From Dokdonia sp. Hel_I_53 (GTDB lineage Bacteria > Bacteroidota > Bacteroidia > Flavobacteriales > Flavobacteriaceae): 64,000 nucleotides of DNA. Position 1 is the stretch's first letter; each line of letters begins with the position of its first letter. The translations under genes were made by a program, and so were the position numbers. Of this stretch, positions 1,712-60,856 are shown piece by piece. The stretch lies in assembly GCF_007827465.1 (NCBI RefSeq), contig NZ_VISL01000001.1, positions 1,445,001 to 1,509,000 on the forward strand, in the 5' to 3' direction. Under the pieces are notes generated by a model. It was given only the letters and a program-made list of their open reading frames with translations, ran no database searches and was not told where the DNA came from.

Positions 1712-1725
1712 GCTTTCGCGAAAGC
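1712..1725. repeat. iterated palindrome, exact 14-bp core
   Basis: GCTTTCGCGAAAGC between the two spacer tRNA genes of the rRNA operon. One of 15 exact copies in the window. Confidence 0.9.
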
Positions 1726-1776
1726 GGTATTCAATAATCAAACATACTCCTGAAAATATGTCTGGTCATTGACCAG

Positions 1777-1850
1777 TAGTCTCAGGCAGACTCGAACTGC
1801 CGACCTCTACATTATCAGTGTAGCGCTCTAACCAGCTGAGCTATGAGACT
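1777..1850 (-). tRNA. tRNA-Ile (GAT)
   Basis: Reverse-strand cloverleaf with acceptor AGTCTCA pairing with TGAGACT, a D-arm like that of the neighbouring tRNA-Ala, anticodon loop CTGATAA (anticodon GAT) and T-loop GTTCGAGTC. The discriminator A is followed by CTG, so CCA is not encoded, unlike the adjacent tRNA-Ala. It is the first spacer tRNA after 16S. Confidence 0.97.
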
Positions 1851-2060
1851 GTCTATAAGTCTATAGTCAATAAACAATAGTTACTAGTAAAAACTAATTA
1901 CTAAAGTAAAACTACTATGTACTTATTAAATTATAATTAAATCGACAGCTATTGAAAACTAAAACCTATTACTGACCTTTCAGTATCGTAAGTCGCTTTG
2001 CTGTATACTCTTGATGTTTTACTAATAAATTAGTAAGCACAAGTGCAGGGACAAGCTCTA

Positions 2061-3586
2061 GAAAGGAGGTGTTCCAGCCGCACCTTCCGGTACGGCTACC
2101 TTGTTACGACTTAGCCCCAGTTACCAGTTTTACCCTAGGCCGCTCCTTGCGGTAACGGACTTCAGGTACCCCCAGCTTCCATGGCTTGACGGGCGGTGTG
2201 TACAAGGCCCGGGAACGTATTCACCGGATCATGGCTGATATCCGATTACTAGCGATTCCAGCTTCATGGAGTCGAGTTGCAGACTCCAATCCGAACTGAG
2301 ATAGGGTTTATAGATTCGCTCCTGGTCGCCCAGTGGCTGCTCTCTGTCCCTACCATTGTAGCACGTGTGTGGCCCAGGACGTAAGGGCCGTGATGATTTG
2401 ACGTCATCCCCACCTTCCTCACGGTTTGCACCGGCAGTCTGGCTAGAGTTCCCGACATTACTCGCTGGCAACTAACCACAGGGGTTGCGCTCGTTATAGG
2501 ACTTAACCTGACACCTCACGGCACGAGCTGACGACAACCATGCAGCACCTTGTAATCTGTCCGAAGAAAAAGCCATCTCTGGCCCTGTCAGACTACATTT
2601 AAGCCCTGGTAAGGTTCCTCGCGTATCATCGAATTAAACCACATGCTCCACCGCTTGTGCGGGCCCCCGTCAATTCCTTTGAGTTTCATTCTTGCGAACG
2701 TACTCCCCAGGTGGGATACTTATCACTTTCGCTTAGTCACTCAGCCCGAAAGCCAAACAACTAGTATCCATCGTTTACGGCGTAGACTACCAGGGTATCT
2801 AATCCTGTTCGCTACCTACGCTTTCGTCCATCAGCGTCAATATATTGTTAGTGATCTGCCTTCGCAATCGGTATTCTATGTAATCTCTAAGCATTTCACC
2901 GCTACACTACATATTCTAACCACTTCACAATAATTCAAGACCTGCAGTATCAATGGCAATTCTATGGTTGAGCCACAGACTTTCACCACTGACTTACAAG
3001 CCCGCCTACGGACCCTTTAAACCCAATGATTCCGGATAACGCTTGCACCCTCCGTATTACCGCGGCTGCTGGCACGGAGTTAGCCGGTGCTTATTCTTAT
3101 GGTACCGTCATCAGTATATACATATACCTTATTCTTCCCATATAAAAGTAGTTTACAACCCATAGGGCAGTCTTCCTACACGCGGCATGGCTGGATCAGA
3201 GTTGCCTCCATTGTCCAATATTCCTCACTGCTGCCTCCCGTAGGAGTCTGGTCCGTGTCTCAGTACCAGTGTGGGGGATCTCCCTCTCAGGACCCCTATC
3301 TATCGTAGTCTTGGTAAGCCGTTACCTTACCAACAAACTAATAGAACGCATAGTCATCTTATACCGCCGAAACTTTAAAGTATAAATGATGCCATAAATA
3401 CTTACTATGGGGTATTAATCTTCGTTTCCAAAGGCTATTCCCCAGTATAAGGTAGATTCTATACGCGTTACGCACCCGTGCGCCGGTCGTCATCAAAGTG
3501 CAAGCACTTTATGTTACCCCTCGACTTGCATGTGTTAAGCCTGCCGCTAGCGTTCATCCTGAGCCAGGATCAAACTCTTCATCGTG
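2061..3586 (-). rRNA. rrs: 16S rRNA
   Basis: Complete 16S rRNA gene on the reverse strand. The 5' end carries AGAGTTTGATCCTGGCTCAG (27F site), and the 3' end carries the anti-Shine-Dalgarno CACCTCCTTTC at 2061-2071. The 1492R and 515/806 primer regions are also present. Length is about 1.53 kb. The intact anti-SD is notable only because flavobacterial genes rarely use strong SD sites. Ends are assigned by similarity and may be off by a few bases. Confidence 0.97.
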
Positions 3587-3861
3587 TGTTTTTAATAATA
3601 TTAAACTACTCACAATACAGAAATATCCGGTCAATAATAAACTTCTAGTTTTCAAATTCTTTGTAATAATACCCGAAAGTATTAATACGCGCTGTCAATT
3701 CAATAAATCAATGAACTTTTTTTAATCCTATTTCTATTCAAAACAAAACCAAAAAACTCTTTGTTAAATGCAAAGGAATCGAACCTTTCTTTTATACCAT
3801 AACATTCTCTAAAAATACTCCTGAACTTCGCCTAGCTAACTACTGTTTTTCTAAGCGGGTG

Positions 3862-3891
3862 CAAATATACAACTTAAATTTATCCTGACAA
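3862..3891 (-). promoter_or_regulatory. rRNA operon promoter P3 (proximal)
   Basis: On the reverse strand TTG (3889-3891) is followed by exactly 19 bp and TATATTTG (3862-3869). This is a perfect Bacteroidetes sigma-ABfr type promoter (TTG-N19-TAnnTTTG). It is the nearest of three similar sites before 16S, and a GC-rich CACCCGC follows the -7 box. Confidence 0.75.
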
Positions 3892-3985
3892 CTTTTTTAG
3901 AAAAAAAATTAAAGAAAATTTAAACCTCAACTCGCAAATCTTTTACTGAACTTATCTCCGAATATCTTACCCCTCAAAGCGGGCG

Positions 3986-4015
3986 CAAAACTACAACCCT
4001 TTTTTATATTCTAAA
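3986..4015 (-). promoter_or_regulatory. rRNA operon promoter P2
   Basis: Reverse-strand TAGTTTTG at 3986-3993 matches the -7 consensus. At 19 bp the -33 triplet reads TTT (one mismatch to TTG). It lies 124 bp upstream of P3 and is followed by the same GC-rich stretch (CGCCCGC). Confidence 0.6.
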
Positions 4016-4098
4016 GCACTTTTTTAAAAAATATTTTAAAATAATTTATTCCAGTAAAAAACTCTCAATGAACTACCCGCTCTCGTTTAAACGGACGG

Positions 4099-59139: not shown

Positions 59140-59172
59140 TACTTGAATGCCGATTTATAATGGTTTTAGATA

Positions 59173-59187
59173 CGCTTTCGCGAAAGC
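59173..59187. repeat. iterated palindrome, exact 14-bp core
   Basis: Between the short and long subunit III genes, upstream of the promoter at 59109-59139. Confidence 0.9.
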
Positions 59188-59257
59188 AAACTTCTCTCCA
59201 TAATTTTTTCTCTTTCTCAAAAATAATATAGATGGCTCTACTACATTGTGATTACCA

Positions 59258-59839
59258 CTATTTTGTCACATATAATAACACAAAAAGGAATACCCATAAT
59301 AGATCTAAAAAATGCCAAAATGTTACTCCTAAGGATAAACCTAAATAATCTGTGGGGGTATACTTACCTCTTAATTGATTGATAAGAATAACTAATAAGG
59401 ATATAAAACCTGCAATTACATGTGCTATATGTACTGCAATAATTAGAAATAAAAATGTCGTAGTGATATTACTAGAAGCACCGGTAAAATAATAGCCCTG
59501 CTCTTGAAAAGCTGAAAATCCAGCAAATTGTGATACTACAAAACCTATCCCTAATGCTATTGTAACTACTAGTAATCCAGTACCTAATTGAGACTTTCCT
59601 GATATGATTGCATTTTTTGCTAAATGTATAGTAACACTACTCACCAAAATTAGTAATGTAGAGATGATTAAAGCAACAGGAAAATCATAATTTTCTAACC
59701 AGTCTCTACGCTCCATACTTACGATATAAGCACTCGTGAGGCCAGCAAATGTCATACATAAACTTATGATGCCAAACCAAAGCATTTGCTTTTTAGCTCG
59801 GTCTTGTTTTAGTTTTTCTCCTCCTTTGGTATAATCCAT
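59258..59839 (-). CDS. haem-copper oxidase subunit III (short form)
   Basis: 193 aa, five membrane helices. QMLWFGIISLCMTFAGLTSA, FLFLIIAVHIAHVIAGFISL and GVTFWHFLDLLWVFLFVLLY are the CtaE/CyoC pattern. It starts one base after the ctaB stop, so the two are cotranscribed. It is paralogous to the long subunit III downstream. Confidence 0.92.
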   Translation of the reverse strand: MDYTKGGEKLKQDRAKKQMLWFGIISLCMTFAGLTSAYIVSMERRDWLENYDFPVALIISTLLILVSSVTIHLAKNAIISGKSQLGTGLLVVTIALGIGFVVSQFAGFSAFQEQGYYFTGASSNITTTFLFLIIAVHIAHVIAGFISLLVILINQLRGKYTPTDYLGLSLGVTFWHFLDLLWVFLFVLLYVTK

Positions 59840-59840
59840 A

Positions 59841-60725
59841 CTATCTCAAAAATTTATCTACCACAAAAACTATTTGTAATAAAGTAATATAGGTTACACT
59901 TGAAAGCATTAACCTTTTTGCTGTTTTAGCGTCACGATTTTGATATAACTTTATAGCCCAATACAACATAAATAAACCTAAAGCCCCCACTATAACAGCA
60001 GATATTGGAGATAAAAATAAGGACCCCGTTACTCCAAATGCTGGAACGATAGATATTAAGACTGTCCATATGGTGTATAATACTATCTGGAGTGCAGTAC
60101 CCGTATCACGTTTACCTGTGGGTAACATTGCAAAACCTCCCTTTTTATAATCATCATACAAAAACCACCCAATTGCCCAAAAATGTGGGAATTGCCAGAA
60201 AAATTGAATCATAAACAATGTGCCTGGCTCTATACCAAAGTTATTAGTTGCTGCTACCCATCCCAGCATGTATGGAATCGCTCCAGGAAAGGCACCCACA
60301 AAAACAGAAAGTGGTGTTTTTGTTTTGAGAGGTGTATACAATAACACGTACATAAATATAGAGATTCCTCCAAACATGGCTGTCTGAGGATTGATATACC
60401 ATAAAGTGCCTAATCCCAATAAAGTAAATCCAATTGCAATTGTCAAAGCCATTGTCACAGACATCCTCCCGGAAGCAACTGGCCTGTTTTTTGTTCGGTC
60501 CATCAAAGCATCAAGATCTCTCTCTAGCACTTGATTATATGCATTAGACGCTCCAACCATAAAATACCCTCCTACTGCAAGCAGGAAGACAATAAACCAG
60601 TCTATGTGTTCTGCTGCAAGAAAGTATCCAGCAACACTAGAAAATACGACACTTATAGACAAGCGCATCTTTGTGATTTCTTTGAAATCGTACCAGCTAG
60701 AATAAGTTTGTGTATGAACAGCCAC
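59841..60725 (-). CDS. ctaB: haem o synthase (protohaem IX farnesyltransferase)
   Basis: 294 aa from GTG 60725; TTG 60734 is an alternative. The open frame reaches a TTG at 60797, but that TTG is the -33 box of a good promoter (TTG-N20-TATCTTTG, 60767-60797), so the start must be downstream. UbiA-type prenyltransferase: SNAYNQVLERDLDALMDRTK (N-x3-D region) and YDDYKKGGFAMLP, with about nine membrane helices. It farnesylates haem b to haem o for the oxidase encoded downstream. First gene of the cluster. Confidence 0.93.
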   Translation of the reverse strand: MAVHTQTYSSWYDFKEITKMRLSISVVFSSVAGYFLAAEHIDWFIVFLLAVGGYFMVGASNAYNQVLERDLDALMDRTKNRPVASGRMSVTMALTIAIGFTLLGLGTLWYINPQTAMFGGISIFMYVLLYTPLKTKTPLSVFVGAFPGAIPYMLGWVAATNNFGIEPGTLFMIQFFWQFPHFWAIGWFLYDDYKKGGFAMLPTGKRDTGTALQIVLYTIWTVLISIVPAFGVTGSLFLSPISAVIVGALGLFMLYWAIKLYQNRDAKTAKRLMLSSVTYITLLQIVFVVDKFLR

Positions 60726-60766
60726 GTCGCTCAAAAACAGATATTTTAAGATTTTTTTAAGTCGTG

Positions 60767-60797
60767 CAAAGATACTGCCCAAAAGCAATGTGTACAA
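60767..60797 (-). promoter_or_regulatory. promoter of ctaB
   Basis: Reverse-strand TTG (60795-60797), 20 bp, TATCTTTG (60767-60774). It matches the consensus fully and lies inside the open reading frame that extends ctaB upstream, ruling that extension out. Confidence 0.7.
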
Positions 60798-60840
60798 CTC
60801 ATAAAAATTGAAAGTAAATGATAAGGTCGTGTTAAAATAA

Positions 60841-60856
60841 CGCTTTCGCGAAAGCG
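60841..60856. repeat. iterated palindrome, exact 16 bp
   Basis: In the divergent region between ctaB and the MBL hydrolase gene. Confidence 0.92.

What the first reader, a model, noticed from the sequence alone, without database searches (positions are those of the whole stretch)
1712..60856. Highly iterated palindrome GCTTTCGCGAAAGC about every 3 kb
Fifteen exact copies of a 14-bp perfect palindrome (most extended to CGCTTTCGCGAAAGCG, sometimes flanked by A and T) and about six degenerate ones occur in 64 kb. A rough composition-based estimate at 38 percent GC gives far less than one expected copy. Copies lie in rRNA spacer, convergent, divergent and tandem intergenic regions and in coding sequence, so they are not simply terminators, promoters or operators. 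This recalls cyanobacterial HIP1 but with a different sequence. Candidate roles: target of a DNA-binding chromosome-organising or segregation protein, a methyltransferase site (it contains TCGCGA), or an uptake or recombination signal. I know of no described function.
Basis: partly seen in the sequence, partly recalled or inferred. Interest (0 to 1): 0.82.

Follow-up and report, generated by a model that had tools for sequence, protein, structure and literature searches.

The report
Genome-wide palindromic DNA tag in Dokdonia
A 14-letter palindrome is repeated several hundred times, almost always letter-perfect, across the chromosomes of the marine bacterium Dokdonia and a few relatives; it looks like a DNA self-label, perhaps one that guides uptake of kin DNA, but what reads it is unknown.

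Summary
GCTTTCGCGAAAGC occurs 15 times in the window and 700 times in the 2.93 Mb genome, with 0 for the reversed control. In a family sample, 6 of 397 genomes, from 3 of 237 genera, are rich; in a phylum sample of 395 only the own genome is.
Copies are rarely degenerate (124 exact, 13 one-mismatch in 464 kb). They are kept exactly at orthologous sites while surroundings diverge (229 of 276, against 3.3% of control 14-mers). They avoid lying within 1 kb of each other. About 25 bp on the 5' side of each strand avoids C, whatever the direction of transcription or replication, and not deamination-like. Phage contigs and metal-resistance elements carry it too.
The HIP-methyltransferase model is not supported for three families. 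Best reading: a DUS/USS-like self-DNA uptake tag, palindromic and new for Bacteroidota; receptor unidentified, uptake untested. Main rivals: a recombination or chromosome-organising site.

The parts
1712..1725 (.). exact 14-mer, in the 16S-23S rRNA spacer between two tRNAs
6602..6615 (.). exact 14-mer, inside the RNase HII ORF (6300-6926 +)
13947..13960 (.). exact 14-mer, intergenic (tandem)
15193..15206 (.). exact 14-mer, inside an OmpA-family ORF (14084-15361 +)
19914..19927 (.). one-mismatch copy
21568..21581 (.). two-mismatch copy
25163..25176 (.). exact 14-mer, intergenic (tandem)
28540..28553 (.). exact 14-mer, inside a PLP-dependent enzyme ORF (28018-28932 -); of three relatives whose alignment reaches it, conserved in G005 and G007, 2 substitutions in G004
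30705..30718 (.). exact 14-mer, inside the urocanase ORF; conserved in the one relative (G007) whose alignment reaches it
33749..33762 (.). two-mismatch copy
35767..35780 (.). exact 14-mer, inside the GSCFA-family ORF; conserved in 8 of the 9 relatives whose alignment reaches it, not in G017
39239..39252 (.). exact 14-mer, divergent intergenic between alaS and an M23 peptidase ORF; conserved in 10 of the 11 relatives whose alignment reaches it; in G003 it is split by a 20-bp palindromic insert
44297..44310 (.). exact 14-mer, inside a DsbH/DUF255 ORF; conserved in all 6 relatives whose alignment reaches it
46597..46610 (.). two-mismatch copy
49591..49604 (.). exact 14-mer, upstream of an outer-membrane efflux ORF (a 106-aa mechanical ORF overlaps it)
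52571..52584 (.). exact 14-mer, convergent intergenic
55477..55490 (.). exact 14-mer, intergenic (tandem)
59174..59187 (.). exact 14-mer, intergenic between two COX3-family ORFs
60842..60855 (.). exact 14-mer, divergent intergenic

Best explanation
Each copy is one unit of a genome-wide self-DNA tag that works like the DNA uptake sequences of Neisseria and Haemophilus. The unit is a 14-16 bp palindromic core plus about 25 bp on each side in which C is avoided on the 5' side of each strand. An unidentified receptor, probably a dimer, of a natural-transformation machine would prefer fragments carrying it. Homologous replacement by preferentially imported tagged DNA would then keep copies letter-perfect at fixed places, spread them through the core genome, and also tag resident phages and mobile elements. 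Shown here: number, exactness, positional conservation, spacing, flank bias, and presence in three genera and in phage and metal-resistance elements. Inferred: that a protein reads the site, that it is a dimer, that the force is uptake bias, and the tagging of mobile elements by that route. No uptake was tested, competence genes were not searched for in this genome, and whether the phages are temperate was not tested.
For: 700 copies at 1 per 4.2 kb. Exact to one-mismatch ratio 124:13, and 66:3 in g11. Conserved at orthologous sites in 229 of 276 aligned cases below 80% identity, against 3.3% of control 14-mers (one region of about 20 kb, pairs counted in both directions). Near flanks turn over at about background rate. 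63 of 124 copies intergenic, against 10.7% of sequence. One coding copy (window 35767) coincides with amino-acid differences between species when read by hand (G005 against G017). For neisserial DUS, the abstract and passages of PMC2397512 report a like profile: DUS far more conserved than their surroundings, sited in permissive parts of the core genome, with spacing matched to conversion tracts. The H. influenzae USS also has a core plus weaker flanks (passages of PMC1939737 and PMC7811141). Riemerella columbina prefers its own DNA in transformation (PMC7965970, section 16).
Against: Known DUS/USS are not palindromic (recalled). DUS are absent from recently acquired genes (PMC2397512 abstract), whereas phage contigs and metal-resistance elements carry this motif. 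17% of USS in one H. influenzae strain lie within 30 bp of another (PMC7811141 passage), while here intervals under 1 kb are avoided. No receptor was found. Copies in elements lodged in otherwise motif-poor hosts are still conserved (38 of 81 below 80% identity), which needs repeated passage through motif-rich hosts. In g191 (G207) copies are more degenerate and the flank bias weak.
Confidence: 0.42

Rival explanations
1. A bidirectional recombination signal (Chi-like) or break/repair site: a helicase-nuclease or site-specific enzyme acts at the palindrome and leaves 3' tails in both directions whose 5' flank strand is G/T-rich, favouring RecA.
For: The G/T-rich, C-poor flank strand is the one that would become the 3' tail on either side. 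Density is near that of Chi in E. coli (58 in 250 kb). Avoidance of close pairs and presence in phage contigs fit. That RecA prefers G/T-rich DNA is recalled.
Against: RecC (PF04257) has no match in 50 of 50 genomes. AddB trees do not join the motif lineages: 2 changes, 0% of bootstrap trees with one; AddA (g11 not included) 2 changes, 20% with one. 58 E. coli Chi sites show no comparable flank bias. 14 bp is long for a Chi (recalled). Chi-type function does not by itself explain letter-perfect conservation at each place.
Confidence: 0.2
2. A chromosome-organising or segregation site bound by a nucleoid protein of the ParB/Noc/SMC-loader kind.
For: Palindrome with the layout of a dimer site; about even density around the chromosome; over-dispersed spacing; conservation in place.
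Against: No ori or ter concentration was seen in the 21 sampled stretches. It does not readily explain presence in phage contigs and mobile elements, nor restriction to 3 genera of 237 sampled. No candidate protein was searched for.
Confidence: 0.2
3. A HIP1-type sequence maintained by an orphan DNA methyltransferase and linked repair.
For: Iterated palindrome containing TCGCGA; HIP1 and alternate HIPs track methyltransferases (PMC4390886, abstract and part 1 of 3 of its discussion). PF02086 matches occur in 10 of 16 motif-rich genomes tested (9 of 12 Dokdonia) and in 2 of 14 others.
Against: PF01555 and PF00145 have no match in the own genome, and PF02086 only a weak partial one (E 6.6e-4, 195-aa frame). 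Motif-rich G004, G005, G007, G027, G258 and G207 have no PF02086; G007 and G258 have none of the three families. 15 of 22 TCGCGA in the window lie in the full 14-mer, so the conserved unit is longer than the short inner sites named for HIP1. Type I, Eco57I-type and other methylases were not searched.
Confidence: 0.08
4. A short transposable or REP-like element copied around the genome.
For: Palindromic, enriched between genes; REP-like palindromes do exist in these genomes.
Against: 61 of 124 sampled copies are in ORFs. Copies are conserved exactly at orthologous places below 80% identity. Several sites absent in a relative differ by substitutions at that place, not by a clean insert. Flanks are not shared as sequence.
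Confidence: 0.04
5. A marker that protects DNA from a host defence or degradation system, so that chromosome, phages and mobile elements all carry it.
For: Phage contigs with portal, terminase and head genes carry several copies, and pooled viral sites show C-poor flanks; elements conserve them.
Against: Would have to be a core system of all 18 Dokdonia genomes, while defence systems are usually patchy (recalled). No system was searched for or identified.
Confidence: 0.06

Closest known systems
Neisserial DNA uptake sequence (DUS) and Haemophilus uptake signal sequence (USS)
   Same: Hundreds to thousands of near-exact copies, core genome, conserved while the surroundings diverge, sited in permissive parts; the USS has composition-biased flanks (passages).
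   Different: Palindromic, 14-16 bp core against 9-10 bp cores; flank bias is symmetric and strand-polar; close spacing is avoided; also in phage contigs and metal-resistance elements; Bacteroidota; no uptake shown.
HIP1 (GCGATCGC) and alternate HIPs of cyanobacteria
   Same: Highly iterated palindrome, genome-wide, lineage-restricted; repeat modules insert at a fixed point inside it (HIP1/SDR5, passage; here).
   Different: Longer; about 240 per Mb, 4-8 times less dense than the 1000-2000 per Mb quoted for HIPs; not consistently linked to the three methyltransferase families tested; selected C-poor flanks.
Chi sites (E. coli GCTGGTGG, recalled)
   Same: Density of one per 4-5 kb.
   Different: Chi is short and not palindromic, and shows no comparable flank bias in 58 sites; no RecC match in any of 50 genomes tested.
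parS / Noc binding site (recalled sequences)
   Same: Palindrome of two 8-bp halves with TTTC/GAAA elements.
   Different: Half-site spacing differs; hundreds of copies instead of a few to about 70 (recalled).

Membership tests
DUS/USS uptake sequence | strong over-representation of one exact word, few mismatched forms | tested here: met
   124 exact, 13 one-mismatch in 464 kb; 700 genome-wide
DUS/USS uptake sequence | conserved in place more than surroundings | tested here: met
   229 of 276 against 3.3% of control 14-mers below 80% identity
DUS/USS uptake sequence | absent from recently acquired DNA | tested here: not met
   present in phage contigs and metal-resistance elements
DUS/USS uptake sequence | raises DNA uptake by competent cells | not testable with these tools
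   needs an uptake experiment
DUS/USS uptake sequence | host has a competence machine and cognate receptor | not tested
   relatives of Riemerella competence genes are said to be widespread in Bacteroidetes (PMC8459023 passages); not searched in this genome
HIP1-type sequence | iterated palindrome across the genome | tested here: met
HIP1-type sequence | cognate DNA methyltransferase present in every rich genome | tested here: not met
   for PF01555, PF00145 and PF02086: G007 and G258 have none, though PF02086 is commoner in motif-rich genomes, 10 of 16 against 2 of 14; other methylase classes not searched
Chi site | cognate RecBCD or AddAB whose specificity follows the motif | tested here: inconclusive
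   RecC without match in 50 of 50; PDDEXK_1 (AddB-type) match in 28 of 28, but the AddB tree does not follow the motif
Chi site | modulates helicase-nuclease in vitro | not testable with these tools
   needs biochemistry
Noc/ParB/SMC-type binding site | bound by a nucleoid protein | not testable with these tools
   no candidate searched; no ori/ter concentration seen
REP/MITE element | copies arise by insertion at new places | tested here: not met
   conserved in place; several differences at variable sites are substitutions

The most novel reading that the evidence does not exclude
A palindromic, bidirectional DNA self-label of about 75 bp, with selected strand-polar flanks, read by a protein system not yet described, established separately or passed between distant flavobacterial genera, and obeyed by chromosomes, phages and mobile elements alike.
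Probability: 0.3. Interest if true: 0.88.

Novelty: new variant of a known kind. Interest (0 to 1): 0.73.

Why it matters
If it is an uptake tag, it would be the first palindromic one that I know of (recalled) and, as far as the listings show, the first defined for Bacteroidota, where self-preferring transformation has been seen without a known signal. Dokdonia has finished genomes and is used to study proteorhodopsin-bearing marine bacteria (abstract in the listing), so one binding or uptake assay would settle it. If it is not an uptake tag, several hundred exactly conserved 14-mers mean that a core DNA-reading system is unknown. Either way the HIP puzzle gains a case in which three methyltransferase families can be shown not to be required in every rich genome.

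Tried and rejected
Hairpin or cruciform arms beyond the core: left and right flanks show no positional covariation. Transcription- or replication-driven flank bias: both sides nearly equal whatever the gene strand or replichore (replichores assigned from GC skew of 21 stretches). Deamination footprint: transitions are not in excess in the flanks (Ts/Tv 0.71 near against 1.24 far in pairs at 85% identity or more, 36 sites; 0.64 against 0.89 below, 124 sites). Methyltransferase. RecBCD. AddAB specificity by gene tree. Chi flanks as positive control: E. coli shows none comparable. Clues from unusually close motif pairs: no regulator-like gene stood out in the three pairs looked at. Iterated palindromes in the 80 named loci (words of 10, 12 and 14): only TTTTGCAAAA four times in one locus; non-palindromic words were not looked for. 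The flank bias was my main ground for a Chi reading (note) until the E. coli control and the AddB tree went against it.
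Full report
OBSERVATION. The 14-mer GCTTTCGCGAAAGC is present 15 times exactly in the window, once with one mismatch and three times with two; shuffles give 0.16 in all. The window lies at 1,445,001-1,509,000 of a single 2.93 Mb contig holding 700 copies, with 0 of the reversed control. In 464 kb of that genome (the window plus 20 stretches of 20 kb) there are 124 exact copies, 13 with one, 19 with two and 23 with three mismatches, while six shuffled palindromes give 0 exact, 0 at one and 0-5 at two mismatches. 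Markov models of order 0-4 expect at most 0.0008.

WHO HAS IT. All 18 genomes of the genus carry 369-905 copies. The genus is Dokdonia: contig lengths of G004, G005 and G007 equal those of Dokdonia sp. 4H-3-7-5, PRO95 and Dokd-P16 in Table 1 of PMC13151707 (first of two parts of the text). In a family sample of 397 genomes from 237 genera, 80 hold at least one copy. Six are rich: own and one more Dokdonia, three of genus g11 with 578-664, one of g191 with 408; the other 74 have 1-19. In a phylum sample of 395, 22 have any and only the own genome has more than 6. On an AlaRS tree of 108 rows the nine motif-rich rows need three changes, but weak branches do not exclude one origin with losses.

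ANATOMY. Beyond the 14-mer, C is 81% at -1 and T 66% at -3. From about 4 to 30 bp on the 5' side of each strand C falls to about 0.08-0.12 against 0.18 further out, with G and T raised. Depleted bases per 50 flank nt are 4.86 (123 sites), against 9.09 (sd 0.25) for 2000 sets of random shifts. The two arms do not covary. The bias is nearly the same on the coding and template side and on both replichores. g11 shows it strongly. g191 shows it weakly and has more degenerate copies (56 exact, 20 one-mismatch in 460 kb). Words with two or more C in four bases are avoided most.

PLACEMENT. With a simple ORF caller 61 of 124 copies lie in ORFs and 63 outside, where 10.7% of the sequence lies. Coding copies favour one frame, 33 of 61. 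In the first 100 listed positions of G000 and of G001, intervals under 1 kb number 2 and 4, against 20 and 23 expected from random placement.

EVOLUTION. I compared the region around alaS in 13 Dokdonia genomes, about 20 kb each. In alignments below 80% identity, 229 of 276 motif sites are exact in the partner, against 3.3% of control 14-mers; at 80-90% it is 36 of 39 against 18.4%, at 90% or more 42 of 44 against 53%. Pairs are counted in both directions and are not independent. The 5-25 bp flanks are not conserved as sequence: 70-83% identity, against 78% overall and 81-86% at 26-120 bp. Transitions are not in excess in the flanks, which argues for selection on composition and against a deamination footprint. 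Sites lost or gained differ by substitutions, by an insert inside the motif, or sit in poorly aligned intergenic stretches.

MOBILE ELEMENTS. Several low-copy genomes hold the motif in clusters. I fetched 13 such stretches from 10 genomes. L021-L026, L028, L029 and L035 share long stretches at 72-97% identity; L027, L030, L034 and L036 share little or nothing with them. Ten proteins each of L024 and L022 include heavy-metal efflux pumps, P-type ATPases, a multicopper oxidase and RteC; conjugation genes were not seen among these proteins, so 'integrative element' is inferred. Across the 13 stretches, below 80% identity, 38 of 81 motif sites are exact in the partner against 3.2% of controls. In viral contigs the 16-mer hits 41 stretches. 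Of ten proteins scanned from four pieces of three of these contigs, all ten match phage families, nine of them a family with a head or tail role (one of the nine weakly, E 6e-4), including portal, terminase and major head. The terminase of L258 is 54.5% identical to that of Winogradskyella phage Peternella_1. The 27 stretches that I pooled (of 41) show C 0.138 in the near flank against 0.211 far; 64 sites in the other listed loci, presumed mostly chance hits, show 0.241 against 0.269.

WHAT READS IT. Three DNA methyltransferase families were searched: PF01555 and PF00145 in 40 genomes, PF02086 in 30. The own genome has no match in the first two and one weak partial match in the third (195-aa frame; like frames occur in G002, G013 and G017 and may be another kind of methylase, which is inference). 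G007 and G258 have no match at all to the three. PF00145 is found in five of 12 Dokdonia genomes. PF02086 is found in nine of 12 Dokdonia, one of three g11, not in G207, and in two of 14 other genomes: it is commoner in motif-rich genomes but missing from G004, G005, G007, G027, G258 and G207. RecC has no match in 50 of 50. PDDEXK_1 nucleases of AddB type occur in 28 of 28, but AddB does not group the motif lineages. E. coli Chi sites lack a comparable flank signature. No trans-acting factor was found.

INTERPRETATION. The set of traits (letter-perfect copies, conservation in place within diverging and permissive surroundings, tolerance inside genes, weaker selected flanks, patchy taxonomy) resembles what passages of PMC2397512, PMC1939737 and PMC7811141 report for uptake sequences. 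Two traits fit less well: presence in acquired DNA and avoidance of close spacing. I therefore call it uptake-tag-like with 0.42 confidence and keep the recombination-signal and nucleoid-site readings at 0.2 each. In the paper library no paper holds the 14-mer or its inner 12-mer; ten hold TTTCGCGAAA, and by title and abstract start none concerns such a repeat. Searches on HIP, uptake sequences and Dokdonia listed no description of it by title or abstract start; most subscription journals are not held.

Noticed in passing
L265, L038, L267, L268 (Dokdonia relatives): Short REP-like palindromes (such as CCTGCCTGCCGGCAGGCAGG, and a CTTCGACTGCGCTCAG-type word) sit at the same point inside the motif, CGCT^TTCGCG, in four places; this recalls the SDR5 insertions into HIP1.
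   Followed up: partly
L390-L392 (genus g11): The addA-addB gene order found in all 17 of the other genomes fetched is broken up: no addA-sized ORF lies beside addB in g11, and its AddB sits on a long branch.
   Followed up: partly
L021-L026, L028, L029, L035: A family of metal-resistance elements, one with RteC, is shared between several flavobacterial genera at 72-97% identity.
   Followed up: partly
L384 position 3675 and orthologues: A motif copy inside addA lies at a closely matching position in all six Dokdonia genomes fetched.
   Followed up: no
L404 4500-7800: A stretch of small genes in the own genome, perhaps a prophage remnant (guess), carries two copies 223 bp apart.
   Followed up: no
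G000 2908772-2909257: dnaA lies about 1 Mb from the origin suggested by the GC-skew switch near 1.85 Mb.
   Followed up: no
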